Below, piece after piece: positions 45,172 to 56,349 of a stretch of 64,000 nt of DNA. Source of the stretch: Pontibacter mucosus (GTDB taxonomy: Bacteria > Bacteroidota > Bacteroidia > Cytophagales > Hymenobacteraceae); contig NZ_QBKI01000002.1 in assembly GCF_003054055.1 (NCBI RefSeq), forward strand, positions 248,001 through 312,000. The letters run 5' to 3'. A model generated the notes under the pieces. That model was not told the origin of the DNA. It did no database searches and worked only from the letters and a program-made list of their open reading frames with translations. The position numbers and the translations under genes were made by a program. How positions within the stretch are numbered: the first letter of the stretch is position 1; the number at the start of each line of letters is the position of its first letter.

Positions 45172-45179
45172 TACATTTG
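45172..45179 (+). promoter_or_regulatory. putative -7 box TACATTTG of the sulfite reductase operon
   Basis: Perfect TAnnTTTG, placing transcription start near 45186, about 30 nt before the SAM aptamer. TTTTTG at 45155-45160 is too close for a normal -33 element. Confidence 0.5.
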
Positions 45180-45212
45180 CCCTGAATAGTATTGCTGACC
45201 GCAAGAAATTTA

Positions 45213-45300
45213 TAGACGAAGAGGCGAGAGAACAGGCTCTGTGACCCTCTGGCAACCATCCTCCTTGGAAAGGTGCCAAGTCCTGCCCAACAACGGGAAA
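45213..45300 (+). promoter_or_regulatory. SAM-I-like riboswitch aptamer upstream of sulfite reductase
   Basis: Contains the S-box core in order: GAGGCGAGAG, ACAGGCTCTGTGACCC, TCTGGCAACC, then AAGGTGCCAAGTCCTGCCC. A second aptamer with the same core is upstream of cysH at 56213-56305. Expected to bind S-adenosylmethionine and lower expression when it is abundant. No terminator stem with T-run directly follows; instead a cysteine-rich leader ORF starts 18 nt downstream. Confidence 0.85.
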
Positions 45301-45317
45301 ATATAAATGACAACACC

Positions 45318-45419
45318 ATGAACACAACACAAAACATCCCTACATTCGGAAGCCCTTATTCCCGACACAGCTTTACCCTTGCTGCTGCGATGTGTTGTTG
45401 TTGCTGTTGTACCTGCTAA
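45318..45419 (+). CDS. cysteine-run leader peptide (33 aa)
   Basis: Short ORF ATG...TAA starting about 18 nt after the SAM aptamer. The last nine codons before the stop read Met, six Cys (TGT TGT TGT TGC TGT TGT), Thr, Cys. It has no relatives I know and the N-terminal part (MNTTQNIPTFGSPYSRHS) is unremarkable. A near-identical arrangement, seven Cys codons then Met-Cys-stop, precedes cysH on the other strand. I infer a ribosome-stalling leader that reports cysteinyl-tRNA supply to the downstream sulfite reductase genes, as shown for polycysteine leaders in mycobacteria. Translation itself is not proven. Confidence 0.75.
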   Translation: MNTTQNIPTFGSPYSRHSFTLAAAMCCCCCCTC

Positions 45420-45803
45420 AAATCATTCCTGATTTCGGCCTTCTACTTTTTTGCTGCTTTTGTAAGGCAGCTCTCCAGGCCATTTGTCTTCATTTTTTCA
45501 CGCGTCTGTAGCTGCAGCTATCCTTTTATAGTATGGCAGCCCGGGCGCTTTGTAGCACAGGTATGCGTACAGCAGCAAATACTCCGTTTTTATACTTTTC
45601 CCAAACATGGCCTCAGGCCCATTGTAGCTCCATACCAACATGTGCATGCTGTTGCCAGCAGTATGGTGGTATGCGTGCCTGTTAAGTATAACCTGCCTTT
45701 GTAGATTTCTTAGCCGCGCAGCCCTACCTGGCCGTGTCAGGCGTTCCCATACCTTTTTTATACTTCACGCCGCTTTGGTGGCTTTTATACTTCAAGAATC
45801 ATT
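45420..45803 (+). other. long untranslated spacer between Cys leader and sulfite reductase
   Basis: 384 nt without a convincing gene. It holds an inverted pair CATACCA (45631-45637) / TGGTATG (45667-45673), a small GGCC-TCA-GGCC hairpin near 45610, T-runs near 45446 and 45505, and four AGTATAA words. It should contain the expression platform that responds to the leader, but I cannot assign a definite terminator/antiterminator pair. Confidence 0.55.
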
Positions 45804-47894
45804 ATGCAAAGTTTCAGATCCGAAATAGAGAACCCGCTGGTAGCCAAAGACATTATTGAGCTGGAAAAGAAGATCCGGCTGTACCGAGAGGGCAAGCTGC
45901 AGGAAGACAAGTTCAAGAGCCTGCGCCTGGCCCGGGGCGTGTACGGGCAGCGGCAACTGGGCGTGCAGATGGTGCGCATCAAGCTGCCTTTCGGCAGGCT
46001 GACAACGCAGCAGCTGCTCCGCATCGCCGACATCTCCGACGAGTACTCAACCGGCAACCTGCACCTGACCACGCGCCAGGACATCCAAATTCACTTTGTG
46101 AGCCTGGACCGGACGCCGGAGCTTTGGGCCAAACTGGAAGAGGACGACATCACCATCCGGGAGGCCTGCGGTAACACCGTACGTAACGTAACTGCCTCGC
46201 CCGAGGCCGGCATTGACCCCGAGGAGCCGTTCGATGTGTCGCCCTACGCCGATGCCACCTTCCGCTATTTCCTGCGCAACCCGATTTGCCAGGAGATGGG
46301 CCGCAAGTTCAAGATGTCCTTCTCCTCCAGCGACTCCGACACGGCCATGTCGTATCTGCACGATTTGGGCTTTATCCCGAAAATAAAAGATGGCCAGCGC
46401 GGCTTTAAAGTACTGATTGGGGGCGGCCTGGGGGCGCAACCGGTACTGGCGCATACGGCTTTTGAGTTCCTGCCGGAGGATAAAGTTATACCTTTCATAG
46501 AGGGCGTGCTGCGTATCTTCGACCGCTACGGGGAGCGCAACAACCGCAACAAAGCGCGGTTCAAGTACCTGATTGGCAAACTGGGGCTGGAAGAGGTGCT
46601 GCGCCTGGTAAACGAGGAGTACAAGGCCCTCAAGTCACACAGCTTCGAAATCGATAAAAGTATAGATTTCAACGCCGCGCCACCTGCCGCCAGGGAGATT
46701 CCGGATTTTGTGCTGGAGGATACCGATAAGTATGAAAAGTGGTTAAAAACGAATGTGTTCCGGCAGAAGCAGGACGGCTTTTACGGCATCTACCTCAAAG
46801 TACAGATTGGTGACATCAGCACCACCACCGCCCGCCAATTGGTGCCCCTGGTGCGCGACTTTGCAGCCGACGAACTGCGCGTGACGCAGGGGCAGAACCT
46901 GCTGCTCAAGTATGTGCGCGAGGAGGCCCTGCCTTACGTTTTTGCCCGGCTCGATGATCTGGGCCTGGCTGAGCCGGGCTTTAATAGTACCGCCGACATC
47001 ACCACCTGCCCCGGCACCGACACCTGTAACCTGGGCATCTCCAACAGCACCAATATTACCAAAGTGCTGGAGCAGGTGCTAGTGCAGGAGTACCCGGAGA
47101 TGCTGTTCAACACCGACTTTAAAATCAAAATTAGCGGCTGTATGAACTCCTGCGGCCAGCACGGCATGGCCAACCTGGGTTTCCATGGCTCCTCGCTCAA
47201 GAGCGGTAAAAGTGTGCTGCCGGCCCTGCAGGTGCTGCTCGGCGGCGGCACGGTGCAGAACGGCGAAGGCCGCATCGCTCAGAAACTCCTGAAAGTGCCC
47301 AGCAAACGCGGACCAGAGGTGCTGCGCTACGTGCTCAACGATTACCTGGCAAACAAGCAGGAGGGAGAAACCTTCAACGCCTACTACGACCGCAACGGCA
47401 AAGACTATTTCTACCAGCTGCTGAAACCGCTGACGGACCTGACCACGCTAACCGCTCAAGACTTTGTGGATTGGGGGCACCAGGATGGCTTTCAGCCGGC
47501 GATAGGAGTGGGCGAGTGCGCGGGCGTGATGATTGACTTGGTAGCGACGCTGCTGTATGAGGCCGACGAGAAGCTGGAATGGGCGGCGGAGGCGCTGGAA
47601 GAGCAGCGCTTTGCCGATGCCATCTACTACGGCTACGCCGCCTTCATCAGCACGGCCAAAGCCCTGCTGCTCGACAAGAGCGTGAGCACCAACACCCAGC
47701 ACAGCATCCTGCAGGAGTTCGATACGCATTTTGTAGAGACGGGCCTTTTTTCGTTTGCGCCTGACTTTAAAAGTAGTGTGCTGCAAATTAACCAGCACGA
47801 GCCTAGCGAGGGCTTTGCAACAGAATACCTAAGCCAGGCGCTCTTGTTTTTGCAGCAGGCTAACCACTACAGGAAAGAAATTGTGAATGCGTGA
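45804..47894 (+). CDS. sulfite reductase hemoprotein with C-terminal HEPN-like domain
   Basis: Reduces sulfite to sulfide with siroheme and a [4Fe-4S] cluster. Two ferredoxin-like half repeats (about 45-110 and 330-395) and the siroheme/cluster ligands Cys402, Cys408 (TCPGTDTC), Cys446 and Cys450 (CMNSCGQ) are visible; substrate-binding TTRQDIQIHF is near residue 88. The catalytic part ends near 560 and an additional helical domain of about 130 residues follows (GECAGVMIDLVATLLYEADE, FADAIYYGYAAFISTAKALL), resembling HEPN/substrate-binding helical bundles. No CysJ flavoprotein is adjacent, so the electron donor is probably ferredoxin. First enzyme gene of the operon headed by a SAM aptamer and Cys leader. 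Nitrite reduction is a less likely alternative given the neighbours. Confidence 0.88.
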   Translation: MQSFRSEIENPLVAKDIIELEKKIRLYREGKLQEDKFKSLRLARGVYGQRQLGVQMVRIKLPFGRLTTQQLLRIADISDEYSTGNLHLTTRQDIQIHFVSLDRTPELWAKLEEDDITIREACGNTVRNVTASPEAGIDPEEPFDVSPYADATFRYFLRNPICQEMGRKFKMSFSSSDSDTAMSYLHDLGFIPKIKDGQRGFKVLIGGGLGAQPVLAHTAFEFLPEDKVIPFIEGVLRIFDRYGERNNRNKARFKYLIGKLGLEEVLRLVNEEYKALKSHSFEIDKSIDFNAAPPAAREIPDFVLEDTDKYEKWLKTNVFRQKQDGFYGIYLKVQIGDISTTTARQLVPLVRDFAADELRVTQGQNLLLKYVREEALPYVFARLDDLGLAEPGFNSTADITTCPGTDTCNLGISNSTNITKVLEQVLVQEYPEMLFNTDFKIKISGCMNSCGQHGMANLGFHGSSLKSGKSVLPALQVLLGGGTVQNGEGRIAQKLLKVPSKRGPEVLRYVLNDYLANKQEGETFNAYYDRNGKDYFYQLLKPLTDLTTLTAQDFVDWGHQDGFQPAIGVGECAGVMIDLVATLLYEADEKLEWAAEALEEQRFADAIYYGYAAFISTAKALLLDKSVSTNTQHSILQEFDTHFVETGLFSFAPDFKSSVLQINQHEPSEGFATEYLSQALLFLQQANHYRKEIVNA

Positions 47895-48824: not shown

Positions 48825-50366
48825 ATGGATAATCTCCAAGATAATAATCTGCCCGAGCCCGTAGTGGCGCAGGAGAATGGAGAAGTGAGCAATCCGCTGT
48901 TTCCGGTTTTCATGAAACTGGAGGACTTGCAGACCTTGGTCGTGGGAGGCGGAGCCGTAGGGTTAGAAAAATTGTCGGCTATACTTGCCAACAGCCCCAA
49001 GGCACAGGTGCGGCTGGTGGCCCCGGAGGTGCACACCGCTATCTGGACTTTGGCCGCCAGGCACCCACACGTGGAGGTGGTCGTGCGGGAGTTTCAGGAC
49101 GAAGACCTGGCGGGCGTGGATCTAGCCCTGATTGCCACAGACGATCATATTCTTAACAAGGCCATCCGCGATCTGGCCAAATCCAGGAAAATACTCACCA
49201 ACGTAGCCGATACCCCGGAGCAGTGCGATTTTTACCTGGGCTCGGTGGTGCAGAAAGGCAGCCTGAAGCTGGGCATCTCTACCAACGGCAAATCGCCCAC
49301 GGTGGCCAAGCGGGTGAAAGAGGTGCTCAACGAGGCCTTCCCCGACGAGATAGACCAGGTGCTGGGCAAGCTGGGTAAAATCCGCACACAGCTCAGCGGC
49401 GATTTCACGGAGAAAGTCCGGCAGCTGAACCACCTGACGGAGGGGCTGGTGAACCCGCTGCCCAAGAAGCGCTACCGCTACCGCTTTACCTACGTGCTGG
49501 CCACCCTGACAGCGGTGATTGCCCTGATGGTGACCGGCCATTTGCTCTTCAGCTACATTCCGCTGCAAACCATCGGCACCGTCGCCATGGACATTGCCTC
49601 CGAGGTCGACTCCGGCATCCTCATTTTTATACTTGCCGGCTTCGTGGCCCAGCTGATAGACGGTGCCCTGGGGATGGCCTATGGCGTGAGTGCCACCACT
49701 TTCCTGCTGAGCGTAGGGGTGAGTCCGGTGGCGGCCAGTGCCAGTGTGCATGCCTCTGAGATTTTTACCTCCGGCGTGTCGGGCTGGATGCACCTGAAGT
49801 TCAAGAACGTAAACAGCAAGTTGTTCAAAAGCATCGTGCTGCCCGGGGTGCTGGGGGCCATACTAGGAGCTTACCTGCTCTATGCCTTCGAGGATTACCT
49901 CTATGTCATCAAGCCGATTGTGGCCGCCTATACCATGTTTCTGGGCATTCTGATTCTGCGCAAAGTGTTGCGGAAGAAGACAAAGAAGAAGCCGGTGAAA
50001 AGACTTGGGTTTCTGGCCACAGCAGGCGGCTTCCTGGATGCCATTGGCGGTGGCGGCTGGGGGCCGATTGTGTCCTCCACGCTTATTGCCAAAGGCCGTA
50101 ACCCGATGTATACCATCGGCTCTGTGAACCTGGCTGAGTTTTTTGTGTCAGTGGCCAGCTCGGCTACTTTTGTGGCCTTTGCCGGTATTTCTCATTGGCA
50201 GATTATACTTGGCCTGATCCTGGGAGGAGCCATCGCCGCACCGCTGGGCGCGTACCTGGCCCGTAAGCTGCCGGTTAAAACGATGATGATCATCGTGGGC
50301 ATCGTGGTGATCATCGTGAGCCTGAGGCTGATGGTGCTGGCCTTGCCGTTTGATCTGCCTTGGTAA
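48825..50366 (+). CDS. fusion: precorrin-2 dehydrogenase (siroheme synthase N-domain) + TauE/SafE permease
   Basis: Two functions in one 513-residue chain. Residues about 28-200 match CysG-N/Met8: LVVGGGAVGLEKLSAILANSP NAD site, ATDDHILNKAI, NVADTPEQCDFYLGSVVQ and ISTNGKSPTVAKRVKEVL. After a basic linker (PLPKKRYRYRF) come 8-9 membrane helices of the TauE/SafE (DUF81) type, with GFVAQLIDGALGMAYGVSATTFLLS and GGFLDAIGGGGWGPIVSSTLIAKG as the two half-repeat signatures. The dehydrogenase makes siroheme from precorrin-2; the permease probably moves sulfate, sulfite or an organosulfonate. The reading frame is continuous, with no sign of a frameshift. 14 nt after cobA. Confidence 0.9.
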   Translation: MDNLQDNNLPEPVVAQENGEVSNPLFPVFMKLEDLQTLVVGGGAVGLEKLSAILANSPKAQVRLVAPEVHTAIWTLAARHPHVEVVVREFQDEDLAGVDLALIATDDHILNKAIRDLAKSRKILTNVADTPEQCDFYLGSVVQKGSLKLGISTNGKSPTVAKRVKEVLNEAFPDEIDQVLGKLGKIRTQLSGDFTEKVRQLNHLTEGLVNPLPKKRYRYRFTYVLATLTAVIALMVTGHLLFSYIPLQTIGTVAMDIASEVDSGILIFILAGFVAQLIDGALGMAYGVSATTFLLSVGVSPVAASASVHASEIFTSGVSGWMHLKFKNVNSKLFKSIVLPGVLGAILGAYLLYAFEDYLYVIKPIVAAYTMFLGILILRKVLRKKTKKKPVKRLGFLATAGGFLDAIGGGGWGPIVSSTLIAKGRNPMYTIGSVNLAEFFVSVASSATFVAFAGISHWQIILGLILGGAIAAPLGAYLARKLPVKTMMIIVGIVVIIVSLRLMVLALPFDLPW

Positions 50367-52931: not shown

Positions 52932-54188
52932 TTAATACTCAATCTCGGCTACCATACCGGCACCTACTGTGGCAAACGAAGTCTCATCCACCAATATAAA
53001 ACCGCCGTTGGCGCGGTTGTCGGCATACTTGTCGAGCAGGAGTGGGGAGGCAGCTTTTATCTGCACACGGCAGATGTCGTTCAGTTGTATCTGGTCCACG
53101 TCCTCCAGGTGGTCGAGTGTGTTGATGTCGATTTTGTAATCGATGTTACGCACCACGCAGCGGGTTTCGGTGGAGTTGTGGCGGAGCAGCAGCTTGGCGC
53201 CGGGCTTCAGGGCCTTGTTGTGCATCCAGCATACCTCGGCCTCAAACTCCTGCGCTACTTCCAGGTTTTCAGCGGCTTTCACAATCATATCGCCACGGCT
53301 AATGTCCACATCGTCCTCCAGTTGCAGCACCACCGACATCGGGGCAAAGGCCTCTTCCAGCACCTGGCCGCCCAGTTCCACAGATTTAATGGTGGATGTC
53401 TGGCCTGATGGTTGTACCGTCACTTTATCACCGGCCTTATAGGTGCCGCTGATTACTTTGCCGGCATAACCGCGGTAGTCGTGGTGCTCGGCTGTGAGCG
53501 GGCGGATCACATACTGCACCGGGAAGCGCGCGTCCTCCAGGTTAAAGTCCTGCGACACGGGTACCTGCTCCAAATGCTCCAGCAGGCTGGGACCTTTGTA
53601 CCACGGCATGGTCAGCTCGGAACCTTCCACGATGTTGTCGCCTTTCAGAGCACTTACCGGGATAAAGGTGATTTCTTTGGCGCGCAGCTTTTTGGCAAAC
53701 TGCTTATAGTCCTCCACAATCTGGTTATATACCTGCTCCTCGTAGCCCACCAGGTCCATTTTGTTGATACAGATAACCAGGTGCGGGATGCCTAACAGCG
53801 AAGAAATGATAGAGTGGCGACGCGTCTGCTCCTGCACCCCTTTACGGGCATCTACAAGTATAATAGACAAGTTTGAATTGGACGCACCCGTTACCATGTT
53901 GCGGGTATACTGGATGTGGCCCGGCGCATCGGCGATGATGAACTTGCGCTTCTCGGTGGAGAAGTACTTGTAGGCCACGTCGATGGTGATACCCTGCTCG
54001 CGCTCTGCCTTCAGACCGTCTGTGAGCAAGGAAAGGTCCACCTGTCCGTCCTCATTCAATCGGCCGGAACTTTCAATGGCTTCCAGTTGGTCGGCAAATA
54101 TCTGTTTGGTATCATAGAGCAGGCGGCCGATGAGTGTGCTCTTGCCGTCGTCTACGTTGCCGGCTGTTATAAATCGTAGAATGTCCAT
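52932..54188 (-). CDS. cysN: sulfate adenylyltransferase, GTPase subunit
   Basis: GTPase that drives APS formation by CysD. EF-Tu-like: P-loop GNVDDGKST (10-18), switch II DAPGH near residue 88, NKMD near 141 and SALKGDN near 180, followed by two beta-barrel domains. 418 residues, no fused APS kinase (CysC) domain, consistent with an APS-reducing pathway in which PAPS is not needed. The ATG overlaps the cysD stop by one base (TAATG). Last gene of the cysHDN operon, ending at a bidirectional terminator. Confidence 0.95.
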   Translation of the reverse strand: MDILRFITAGNVDDGKSTLIGRLLYDTKQIFADQLEAIESSGRLNEDGQVDLSLLTDGLKAEREQGITIDVAYKYFSTEKRKFIIADAPGHIQYTRNMVTGASNSNLSIILVDARKGVQEQTRRHSIISSLLGIPHLVICINKMDLVGYEEQVYNQIVEDYKQFAKKLRAKEITFIPVSALKGDNIVEGSELTMPWYKGPSLLEHLEQVPVSQDFNLEDARFPVQYVIRPLTAEHHDYRGYAGKVISGTYKAGDKVTVQPSGQTSTIKSVELGGQVLEEAFAPMSVVLQLEDDVDISRGDMIVKAAENLEVAQEFEAEVCWMHNKALKPGAKLLLRHNSTETRCVVRNIDYKIDINTLDHLEDVDQIQLNDICRVQIKAASPLLLDKYADNRANGGFILVDETSFATVGAGMVAEIEY

Positions 54189-55189: not shown

Positions 55190-55909
55190 TTACTTGGCGT
55201 GCAGTCCGCACTCTTTTTTGGAGTTGTCTTCCCACCACCAACGGCCGGCGCGGAAGTCCTCGCCCGGCTGGATGGCGCGGGTACAAGGGGCGCAGCCAAT
55301 GCTGACAAAACCTTTGTCGTGCAGCGGGTTGTAGGGGATGTGCAGGGCCTTTACGGTAGCTAGCACCTCGTCCAAAGTATAATTTAGCAGCGGGTTATAC
55401 TTAATGAGCTGGTGCGCCTCGTCCCACTCCAGCAGCTGCAAGTCCTGGCGCGCACCCGATTGGTCGGCGCGGATGCCGGTTACCCATACCTGCACCCCCT
55501 GCAGGGCGCGGTTCAGGGGCTCCACCTTGCGGATATAACAACACTCCTTGCGGTCTTCAATAGAGTTGTAGAAGCTCATCGGGCCCTTCTCATTCACCAA
55601 CTGCTCCACGGCCTCGTGCTTCGGAAAGTATACTTCCATGTTCTTGCCGTAGTGCTTGTTGGTTTTGTGCAGCAGCGTGTAGCTCTCGTTAAAGAGACGG
55701 CCGGTGTCCAGGGTGAACACGCGCACGGGCAGGTTCTGCTCAAAGATGTAGTGGGTGATGAGCTGGTCTTCGATACCGAGACTGGAGGAGAAGGCGATGC
55801 TGCCCTCAAACTCCTTGGTGAGGCGGCGAAGGCCTTCGGCTGCCGGTAAACCCGCCAGTGCCGTACGCAGCACGTCGAGCTTGGCCAGTAGTTCCTGTGA
55901 TAAATCCAT
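55190..55909 (-). CDS. cysH: adenylylsulfate (APS) reductase
   Basis: Reduces APS to sulfite, the substrate of the sulfite reductase in the facing operon. SSSLGIEDQ PP-loop-like nucleotide site at 41-49; the [4Fe-4S] cysteines Cys123, Cys124 (KECCYIRK), Cys206 and Cys209 (GCAPC) mark the APS-type, iron-sulfur enzyme rather than the PAPS type; the catalytic cysteine is Cys234 in KKECGLH at the C-terminus. 239 residues, complete. First enzyme of the minus-strand operon, 147 nt after the polycysteine leader ORF and downstream of a SAM aptamer. Confidence 0.95.
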   Translation of the reverse strand: MDLSQELLAKLDVLRTALAGLPAAEGLRRLTKEFEGSIAFSSSLGIEDQLITHYIFEQNLPVRVFTLDTGRLFNESYTLLHKTNKHYGKNMEVYFPKHEAVEQLVNEKGPMSFYNSIEDRKECCYIRKVEPLNRALQGVQVWVTGIRADQSGARQDLQLLEWDEAHQLIKYNPLLNYTLDEVLATVKALHIPYNPLHDKGFVSIGCAPCTRAIQPGEDFRAGRWWWEDNSKKECGLHAK

Positions 55910-56056: not shown

Positions 56057-56191
56057 TTAGCACATGCAACAGCAACAACAGCAACACTCCTGAGGCGGTA
56101 GTGCCGTATTGATGTGTAAAGTAGCCCAAACTGTGGTGTTGCCACAGCCTGTTGCTGTACATGGTGCCGGTTGGTTGTTGTAGGTTTGCAT
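56057..56191 (-). CDS. cysteine-run leader peptide (44 aa)
   Basis: ATG CAA ACC ... TAA on the minus strand, beginning about 22 nt after the SAM aptamer. It ends Glu, seven Cys (TGT TGC TGT TGT TGC TGT TGC), Met, Cys, stop, and has two more Cys at positions 11 and 16. The upstream part (MQTYNNQPAPCTATGCG) is not similar to the plus-strand leader beyond composition. Mixed use of both Cys codons argues against a simple triplet slippage tract. Read with the plus-strand copy, this is most simply a cysteine-sensing leader of the cysHDN operon. Reading another frame of the same bases gives a run of Leu, which I consider a shadow. Confidence 0.75.
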   Translation of the reverse strand: MQTYNNQPAPCTATGCGNTTVWATLHINTALPPQECCCCCCCMC

Positions 56192-56212
56192 CGCGTTATC
56201 CATTTATATGCC

Positions 56213-56305
56213 CCGGCCACGCCGGGATAGGATGTGGCACCTTACCTTGTCAGGAGGTTGCCAGAGGGTCCTGGAGCCTAGTCTCTCGCCTCTTCTCTAT
56301 AAACT
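56213..56305 (-). promoter_or_regulatory. SAM-I-like riboswitch aptamer upstream of cysH
   Basis: Minus-strand core: GAGGCGAGAGACTAGGCTCC, AGGACCCTCTGGCAACC, then AAGGTAAGGTGCCACATCC. Positions and core bases match the plus-strand aptamer at 45213-45300, with different loop sequences, which indicates a conserved structure rather than a recent duplication. Confidence 0.85.
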
Positions 56306-56341: not shown

Positions 56342-56349
56342 CAAAATTA
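56342..56349 (-). promoter_or_regulatory. putative -7 box TAATTTTG of the cysHDN operon
   Basis: TAnnTTTG on the minus strand about 37 nt before the SAM aptamer, mirroring the plus-strand operon. Confidence 0.5.

What the first reader, a model, noticed from the sequence alone, without database searches (positions are those of the whole stretch)
45172..45804. SAM riboswitch followed by a polycysteine leader ORF in front of sulfite reductase
In order: TACATTTG box, SAM-I-like aptamer, 33-codon ORF ending Met-Cys6-Thr-Cys-stop, 384-nt spacer, sulfite reductase-siroheme-metZ operon. A run of six Cys in 33 codons at the very end of an ORF is far beyond chance and is what a ribosome-stalling sensor of cysteinyl-tRNA needs. 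Polycysteine leaders are established in mycobacteria; coupling one to a SAM aptamer in Bacteroidota would be a dual SAM/cysteine sensor that I do not know from the literature.
Basis: partly seen in the sequence, partly recalled or inferred. Interest (0 to 1): 0.93.

Follow-up and report, generated by a model that had tools for sequence, protein, structure and literature searches.

The report
SAM switch gating a cysteine meter
In this Pontibacter genome and in many other Bacteroidota, RNA switches of the kind that bind S-adenosylmethionine (SAM) sit directly in front of a tiny gene that ends in a run of cysteine codons, a pairing that likely lets the cell read SAM and cysteine together before it switches on its sulfur genes.

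Summary
The window holds two such leaders (the second at 56057-56305, minus strand, before cysH), and six of seven SAM-I aptamers in the genome precede an ORF with a terminal Cys run. Of 220 SAM-I aptamers read, 91 of 110 with a 'TATAA' P1 strand in the window's order have an ORF starting within 30 nt and at least 3 Cys in its last 10 codons, against 2 of 102 GATAA/GATGA-type aptamers, 1 of 30 cobalamin riboswitches and about 1 of 110 after shuffling. In these 110 loci all 90 TGY runs of three or more are in frame with the start codon. A capped scan of named genomes adds records from other Bacteroidota orders. P1 lies where a ribosome would start the leader, so the likely mechanism is serial: SAM decides whether the leader is read, cysteinyl-tRNA supply whether the ribosome stalls at its end. 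No general terminator was found behind the leader; the output step (perhaps Rho) is inferred. The parts are known separately (polycysteine leaders and riboswitch-controlled uORFs, both in mycobacteria); my searches found the combination nowhere in print.

The parts
45172..45179 (+). TACATTTG, Bacteroidota-type -7 promoter box (TAnnTTTG) 27 nt before the aptamer
   Evidence: sequence; the box lies within 100 nt upstream of 66 of 94 leader-type aptamers against 6.3 after mononucleotide shuffling; consensus TAnnTTTG as stated for Flavobacterium in PMC9723704 (passage seen); transcription start not mapped
45207..45309 (+). SAM-I riboswitch aptamer (RF00162)
   Evidence: cmscan 61.7 bits, cut-off 44.4
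45302..45309 (+). 3' strand of aptamer helix P1 (UAUAAAUG), 8 nt before the leader start codon; predicted translation-initiation region of the leader
   Evidence: cmscan alignment; start codon 6-11 nt behind the aptamer end in 85 of 91 leader loci
45318..45419 (+). leader ORF, 33 codons, MNTTQNIPTFGSPYSRHSFTLAAAMCCCCCCTC
45393..45410 (+). six consecutive Cys codons (TGT TGT TGT TGC TGT TGT)
   Evidence: sequence; pattern hits
45420..45803 (+). 384-nt spacer without a strong intrinsic terminator; predicted site of the output step
   Evidence: best hairpin followed by a T-rich tract only -6.0 kcal/mol, near the gene
45804..47894 (+). sulfite reductase (NIR_SIR domains)
   Evidence: Pfam PF01077/PF03460
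47983..48810 (+). tetrapyrrole methylase (uroporphyrin-III methyltransferase-like)
   Evidence: Pfam PF00590; the narrower name is by recall
48825..50366 (+). siroheme-synthase N-terminal part fused to a TauE/SafE exporter domain
   Evidence: Pfam PF13241, PF14824, PF01925
50413..51579 (+). Cys/Met metabolism PLP enzyme (metZ/metB-like)
   Evidence: Pfam PF01053; the narrower name is by recall
56342..56349 (-). TAATTTTG, TAnnTTTG promoter box 36 nt before the second aptamer
   Evidence: sequence
56201..56305 (-). second SAM-I aptamer
   Evidence: cmscan 67.1 bits
56057..56191 (-). second leader ORF, MQTYNNQPAPCTATGCGNTTVWATLHINTALPPQECCCCCCCMC; an in-frame ATG at 56201-56203 inside P1 could add four codons
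56066..56086 (-). seven consecutive Cys codons, followed by Met-Cys-stop
   Evidence: sequence; pattern hits
55190..55909 (-). cysH-type PAPS/APS reductase
   Evidence: Pfam PF01507
54188..55138 (-). cysD-type sulfate adenylyltransferase subunit
   Evidence: Pfam PF01507; the split into cysH and cysD rests on order and size, by recall
52932..54188 (-). cysN-type GTPase subunit
   Evidence: Pfam PF00009; the name cysN is by recall

Best explanation
It is a leader made of a SAM-I aptamer and, a few bases behind it, a small ORF that ends in a run of cysteine codons, and it is predicted to act as two sensors in series: SAM binding would close the start of the ORF, and lack of charged cysteinyl-tRNA would stall the ribosome at its end. 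Shown: aptamer, ORF, distance, frame, terminal position of the Cys run and its conservation in front of sulfur-assimilation and methionine genes. Inferred: with SAM bound, helix P1 pairs the stretch just upstream of the start codon, so the leader is not read and the downstream genes stay low. Inferred: with SAM scarce the leader is read; if cysteine is plentiful the ribosome runs to the stop codon and leaves, and transcription mostly ends in the spacer; if cysteine is scarce the ribosome sits on the Cys codons, shields the RNA behind it and the genes are expressed. The output step is probably premature termination that needs naked RNA (Rho) rather than a hairpin-U-tract terminator; this is the weakest step. 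In metY-type leaders Met codons next to the Cys run may add methionyl-tRNA as a further input.
For: Aptamers: RF00162 far above cut-off. Own genome: 6 of 7 aptamers carry a leader; the exception precedes metH. Comparative: 91 of 110 TATAA-type aptamers in the order against 2 of 38 GATAA/GATGA-type in the order and 0 of 64 outside it; 1 of 30 cobalamin riboswitches of relatives; shuffles 1.24 of 110. Frame: 90 of 90 TGY runs of 3 or more are in frame and before the stop, where one third is expected by chance. Codon-level selection: in cysH leaders the last 8 codons differ at positions 1/2/3 in 16/31/107 of 288 codon comparisons, codons 9-25 from the end in 413/326/417 of 612, so the run is kept as Cys and the rest drifts (other groups in the full report, some with less contrast). 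Cys is 57% of the last 10 residues and 1.7% elsewhere in 93 leaders chosen for terminal Cys. P1: start codon 6-11 nt behind the aptamer in 85 of 91, and in L146, L148 and L196 the same aptamer type stands 8-10 nt before the start codon of a long enzyme-like ORF, with no leader, which fits direct control of translation starts; Barrick and Breaker 2007 report that the RBS can lie in the P1 3' side of SAM-I riboswitches (PMC2258182, passages). Platform: non-leader aptamers show terminator-like hairpins (-7.35 against -3.89 shuffled in the order, n 36; -8.86 against -2.87 outside, n 64); behind the stop of 93 leaders the excess is small (-5.54 against -4.90). The 100 nt behind the leader stop are C-rich over G (ratio 1.49; 1.09 upstream of the aptamer) and a Rho RNA-binding domain is encoded.
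Against: No expression, binding or ribosome data. Of 110 TATAA-type aptamers in the order, 17 have no TGY run of 3 and 3 have no start codon in place; families f5 (1 of 4), f11 (0 of 2) and f19 (1 of 5) mostly lack the run although an ORF often starts at the same place. Spacers are poorly conserved (metY group) and vary in length; pairing of the Cys run with the spacer is not beyond a control segment by mean (z -0.40 and -0.40; medians -0.33 and -0.08), and C-richness is weak evidence for Rho. Terminator-like hairpins are not wholly absent: first scan -6.34 against -4.88, 32% against 20% below -8; second scan 24% against 14% below -9 behind the stop, and -4.58 against -2.97 (16% against 5% below -9) directly behind the aptamer. 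A hairpin inside metY leaders (modest covariation) and a TGCTGC motif behind the stop in 28 of 93 (6.3 in shuffles) hint that RNA structure may matter for some targets. The mycobacterial polycysteine leaders are called translation attenuation in PMC13236596 (passage), not Rho termination.
Confidence: 0.74

Rival explanations
1. The ORF encodes a working cysteine-rich microprotein (metal or redox binding, or a peptide precursor) that is merely co-regulated by the SAM riboswitch.
For: Cys runs can bind metals (recalled); the ORF looks translated by the frame test.
Against: Outside the terminal run the peptides show no codon-position signal of protein selection in the five groups compared; one genome carries six, different by eye, each in front of a different gene; the run sits at the last codons (Cys at 71-94% of each of the last five positions in 93 leaders chosen for terminal Cys).
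Confidence: 0.08
2. The SAM-gated leader works, but through a classical folding attenuator: ribosome position chooses between an antiterminator and an intrinsic terminator (or a sequestered start site) in the spacer.
For: Hairpin in metY leaders with 5 of 6 pairs changed on both sides at least once, 1 of 500 shuffles as high; some spacers have strong hairpins followed by T-rich tracts, such as L012 at -16.9; small excess of such hairpins over shuffles; TGCTGC motif behind the stop.
Against: Over 93 leaders terminator-like hairpins are only slightly above shuffles, metY spacers are poorly conserved, and long-range pairing of the Cys run is not special by mean.
Confidence: 0.25
3. The TGY repeats act as RNA or DNA sequence (pairing element, protein site, slippage product), not as codons.
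For: TGYTGY repeats are low in complexity; TGCTGC is also enriched behind the stop.
Against: 90 of 90 in frame; TGT and TGC mixed (334 and 211); interruptions keep frame (CCYSCCC in L003, CCCCMCC in L339); third-position excess.
Confidence: 0.03
4. The Cys run near the aptamer is a lineage accident of Pontibacter without function.
For: 80 of the 150 aptamers read from the order are from this genus.
Against: Outside the genus 28 of 42 TATAA-type or leader-bearing aptamers of the order carry it, and so do records of other orders among the 68 Rfam-confirmed loci of the named scan.
Confidence: 0.01

Closest known systems
Polycysteine uORF attenuators of mycobacteria (Canestrari et al. 2020, not held, seen only as cited in PMC9094748 and PMC13236596; predicted by Seliverstov et al. 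2005, PMC1262725, passages read)
   Same: Short ORF with a run of Cys codons near the stop, in front of cys operons; the 2005 authors saw no conserved terminator and suggested Rho; the 2020 title states a cysteine response.
   Different: There the short ORFs are leaderless (2020 title), and none of the passages I saw mentions a riboswitch; here a SAM-I aptamer precedes the ORF and sits on its start region; other phylum, other targets (metY, sir, cysH, transporters), Met codons in metY leaders. PMC13236596 calls the mycobacterial case translation attenuation.
M. tuberculosis B12 riboswitch with translated leader at ppe2 (PMC11260477, abstract and outline read)
   Same: A riboswitch-controlled uORF whose translation decides expression of the downstream gene.
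   Different: Abstract and outline do not speak of the uORF as an amino-acid meter; output by termination-reinitiation (section heading); another ligand and phylum.
M. tuberculosis Mbox with uORF and Rho-dependent termination (PMC12810186, abstract, outline and passages read)
   Same: Aptamer acts on a uORF through a translational platform, with Rho-dependent termination.
   Different: Mg2+ sensor; the passages describe a uORF peptide conserved at its N-terminus and of unknown role, and mention no run of codons for one amino acid.
SAM-I (S-box) riboswitch with direct P1 control of translation (PMC2258182, passages read)
   Same: Aptamer family; RBS in the 3' side of P1.
   Different: The start site under P1 belongs to a sensing leader, not to the enzyme gene.

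Membership tests
SAM-I riboswitch (RF00162) | aptamer sequence and fold above the curated score | tested here: met
   61.7 and 67.1 bits, cut-off 44.4
SAM-I riboswitch (RF00162) | binds SAM | not testable with these tools
   needs in-line probing or similar
Polycysteine leader attenuator | short ORF ending in a Cys run upstream of sulfur genes | tested here: met
Polycysteine leader attenuator | mRNA begins at the uORF start codon (leaderless), as in mycobacteria | tested here: not met
   a conserved aptamer of about 100 nt lies before the ORF and the promoter box lies upstream of the aptamer; transcription start not mapped
Polycysteine leader attenuator | downstream expression rises when cysteine is limiting and depends on the Cys codons | not testable with these tools
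   no expression data
Classical transcription attenuator (trp type) | intrinsic terminator between leader and gene | tested here: inconclusive
   -5.54 against -4.90 in shuffles over 93 leaders, 24% against 14% below -9 kcal/mol; -6.34 against -4.88 in a first scan
Classical transcription attenuator (trp type) | mutually exclusive conserved hairpins | tested here: inconclusive
   one hairpin with modest covariation in 20 metY leaders; no excess pairing of the Cys run by mean
Riboswitch-controlled uORF with Rho-dependent termination | an aptamer helix lies at the uORF start region | tested here: met
   position of P1 against the start codon; ligand dependence not tested
Riboswitch-controlled uORF with Rho-dependent termination | Rho-dependent ends in the leader | not testable with these tools
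   only composition and presence of rho

The most novel reading that the evidence does not exclude
Bacteroidota wired their sulfur regulon with a copied two-stage gate in which the SAM riboswitch does not act on a gene but licenses a second sensor: SAM decides whether a cysteine-codon meter is read at all, so genes come on only when SAM and charged Cys-tRNA are both low. In metY leaders the meter also reads Met-tRNA. The module marks unknown sulfur genes (an NhaC-type antiporter, a RimK-like ATP-grasp protein, an M14 carboxypeptidase and TonB receptors).
Probability: 0.5. Interest if true: 0.9.

Novelty: new variant of a known kind. Interest (0 to 1): 0.83.

Why it matters
If true, it is a natural serial gate between a metabolite aptamer and a tRNA-charging sensor, found in several orders of a major phylum whose expression platforms and attenuation are, as far as I recall, little studied. 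It would explain how these bacteria tell 'short of methionine/SAM' from 'short of cysteine' with one leader, gives a signature that finds sulfur genes of unknown role, and offers a ready design for two-input RNA control in bacteria that hardly use Shine-Dalgarno sites (the last point recalled, not from a call).

Tried and rejected
Intrinsic terminator behind the leader as a general rule: scanned twice with shuffles, small excess only. Pairing of the Cys run with the spacer as a general antiterminator: mean z -0.40, the same as a control segment. Conserved spacer structure in metY leaders: spacers align poorly; RNAalifold on nine close relatives gave a long-range pairing and several small hairpins; the hairpin inside the leader has modest covariation and is kept only as a lead. 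TGCTGC behind the stop is enriched (28 of 93 against 6.3), partly perhaps through kinship; unexplained. Microprotein, RNA-repeat and lineage-accident readings were set aside on frame, codon-position and breadth. Labels: the window genes and one example each of metY, metH, the antiporter, the TonB receptor, the ATP-grasp protein, the permease and the M14 carboxypeptidase rest on Pfam, with the narrower gene names by recall; metX-like is by eye; further loci were labelled by tblastn to these examples (fetched set of 94, metY 36, cysH 20, antiporter 10, ATP-grasp 8, sir 7, TonB 6, permease 2, one each of M14, metX-like and siroheme-TauE, none 2; named set of 69, metY 44, metX-like 6, metZ 5, sir 4, none 4, antiporter 2, one each of cysD, ATP-grasp, TonB, permease). 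The tools search for homologous proteins, structure prediction and the metagenome collection were not used.
Full report
OBSERVATION. The aptamer is a complete RF00162 match (45207-45309, 61.7 bits, cut-off 44.4). The ORF is 45318-45419 and ends Met-Cys6-Thr-Cys-stop. One search also showed a second SAM-I aptamer on the other strand (56201-56305), and reading on from it gave a second leader, 56057-56191, ending Glu-Cys7-Met-Cys-stop, 147 nt before a cysH-type gene. The two operons face each other across about 11 kb.

OWN GENOME. The assembly has seven SAM-I aptamers. Six are followed 6-9 nt behind their end by an ATG that opens a leader with Cys codons at its end (from CCC-Ser-Lys in L006 to Cys7-Met-Cys in L005): before metY, a TonB receptor, an Na+/H+ antiporter-family gene, cysH, an M14 carboxypeptidase and sulfite reductase (Pfam). 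The seventh precedes metH and has none; its P1 strand reads GATAAG instead of TATAA. A search of the genome for five TGY codons in a row gave 30 overlapping hits; by my merging of overlaps these are 22 places, of which four lie next to a SAM aptamer. At those four the matched codons end at most 4 residues before the stop of a start-codon-initiated leader. Of the other 18, three (L052, L056, L064) also have the run within 3 residues of a stop, in open frames of 9, 26 and 20 codons; I did not check start codons at these 18.

RELATIVES. I read 220 aptamers from 162 genomes. With the rule 'start codon 0-30 nt behind the aptamer, at least 3 Cys in the last 10 codons', the counts are 91 of 110 for TATAA-type aptamers in the window's order, 2 of 38 for GATAA/GATGA-type in the order, 0 of 64 for GATAA/GATGA-type outside it, 0 of 2 for TATAA-type outside it and 0 of 6 for other types. 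The two GATAA-type hits (L083, L176) end in CCCCWR and CCCC and precede metY. The rule picks the start with most Cys, which favours hits, but the same rule gives 1 of 30 for cobalamin riboswitches of relatives and 1.24 of 110 on average for dinucleotide shuffles, maximum 5 in 50 rounds. It also misses a few: counting any run of three gives 95 of 112 TATAA-type or leader-bearing aptamers, and L166, a GTG-started leader that I read by eye in the sequence printed, is missed by both. Kinship matters: 67 of 70 are from the window's own genus and 28 of 42 from the rest of the order. Ten family-level groups have at least one leader; f5 (1 of 4), f11 (0 of 2) and f19 (1 of 5) mostly lack the run while an ORF often still starts at the same distance. 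The genus is Pontibacter: contigs of same-genus genomes G010 and G014 have exactly the lengths of P. indicus and P. ramchanderi records.

NAMED GENOMES. All 80 were scanned with Rfam: 68 hold RF00162. One search finds, at all 68 and at L292 (no Rfam match above cut-off), a start-codon-initiated ORF behind the TATAAA that contains the run and stops at most 9 residues after the matched codons; at the 11 remaining hits, nine of them in other phyla and two labelled Bacteroidota, it finds none. Cys codons are there by construction of the pattern; start and stop are not. Some of the 68 are Pontibacter or other loci already among the 220. The records include Pontibacter, Hymenobacter, Fulvivirga, Cesiribacter, Nafulsella, Thermoflexibacter (Cytophagales by recall), Mucilaginibacter, Solitalea, Pararcticibacter (Sphingobacteriales by recall), and assembled genomes labelled Saprospiraceae, Lewinella, Haliscomenobacter, Chitinophagales, Crocinitomicaceae and Flavobacteriales. 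So the module is not limited to the window's order, although none of the 70 aptamers that I read from outside the order met the rule (these were mostly the strongest-scoring matches).

IT IS A CODON RUN. In the 110 TATAA-type loci of the order, 90 have a run of at least three TGY; all 90 are in frame with the start codon near +9 and before its stop (17 have no run, 3 no start). Right-aligned pairs of leaders from the genus differ at codon positions 1/2/3 as follows, last 8 codons against codons 9-25 from the end: cysH 16/31/107 of 288 against 413/326/417 of 612; sir 15/15/33 of 80 against 127/116/109 of 170; metY 593/478/788 of 1520 against 2203/2179/2085 of 3230; ATP-grasp group 65/57/75 of 224 against 342/292/299 of 476; second cysH group 12/17/24 of 48 against 81/66/73 of 102. 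The third-position excess is in the last codons in all five, weakest in the ATP-grasp group. Pairs are not independent, but the contrast is within the same pairs. Cys is 57% of the last ten residues and 1.7% elsewhere (93 leaders, chosen for terminal Cys). Met, for which nothing was selected, is 7.3% against 1.4%; at least two Met in the last 16 residues occur in 23 of 36 metY leaders and 6 of 57 others.

WHERE THE APTAMER ACTS. The start codon lies 6-11 nt behind the P1 3' strand in 85 of 91 leaders, inside a ribosome's initiation footprint (recalled). In three genomes (L146, L148, L196) the same aptamer type has no leader and stands 8-10 nt before the start codon of a long ORF that by eye resembles metZ or metX. 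This is what one expects if P1 controls whatever translation start follows it; Barrick and Breaker describe such P1 control for SAM-I (PMC2258182, passages). Non-leader SAM aptamers instead show terminator-like hairpins well above shuffles.

OUTPUT STEP. Behind the leader stop I find no general intrinsic terminator (-5.54 against -4.90 kcal/mol shuffled; -6.34 against -4.88 with a longer stretch), no excess pairing of the Cys run by mean and poor spacer conservation in the metY group. Directly behind the aptamer there is a weak excess (-4.58 against -2.97). The 100 nt behind the stop have a C/G ratio of 1.49 (leader ORF 1.36, upstream of the aptamer 1.09, first 300 nt of the main ORF 1.12), and rho is encoded. 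A Rho-type output, as the 2005 authors suggested, calling it weak, for the terminator-less cys leaders of mycobacteria (PMC1262725, passages), is therefore my choice, at lower confidence than the rest; a 2026 paper calls the mycobacterial case translation attenuation (PMC13236596, passage). Structures in metY leaders keep the folding attenuator alive as a rival.

PRIOR WORK. Searches for polycysteine leaders, SAM riboswitch with leader peptide, riboswitch with uORF, and Bacteroidota attenuation (listings, at most 30 titles each) in the open library gave the mycobacterial polycysteine uORFs (through citations), two M. tuberculosis riboswitch-uORF systems (PMC11260477, PMC12810186) and a remark on leader-peptide attenuation before amino-acid operons in Flavobacterium (PMC9723704, passages), but no SAM aptamer joined to a cysteine leader. 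The library lacks most subscription papers, so 'not in print' means not in these searches.

VERDICT. The parts are of known kinds; the serial joining, its spread through the order and into other orders of the phylum, and its likely two-input logic are new as far as I could search. The sequence evidence that the leader is translated and kept for its terminal cysteines is strong; sensing, stalling and output are predicted.

Noticed in passing
window 45307-45321 (+): A four-codon mini-ORF (ATGACAACACCATGA) starts inside P1 and its stop overlaps the leader's start codon, a layout that could allow termination-reinitiation; relatives not checked for it.
   Followed up: no
window 48825-50366 (+): One ORF joins a siroheme-synthase N-terminal region with a TauE/SafE sulfite-exporter domain.
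   Followed up: partly
L003 and L006 (own genome, contig C5, 287 nt apart): Two leader-type SAM aptamers stand back to back in front of a TonB receptor and an M14 carboxypeptidase, perhaps uptake of sulfur-containing peptides.
   Followed up: partly
L021, L031, L122a, L129, L130, L132, L142, L160: A RimK-like ATP-grasp protein of unknown role carries a Cys-run leader at eight loci in seven genomes of the genus (Pfam for L031), a candidate gene of sulfur metabolism.
   Followed up: no
spacers of 28 of 93 leaders, e.g. window 45452-45457 (+): TGCTGC, a copy of the Cys-codon sequence, is enriched behind the leader stop (28 of 93 against 6.3 in shuffles); no explanation.
   Followed up: partly
L016, L020, L071, L090, L169, L170, L193: ORFs at the leader's place with a decayed or absent Cys run, some still with scattered Cys or Met: possible loss or change of the sensed amino acid.
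   Followed up: no
window 45804-47894 (+): Borderline HEPN-domain match (22.2 bits, cut-off 22) near the C-terminus of the sulfite reductase ORF.
   Followed up: no
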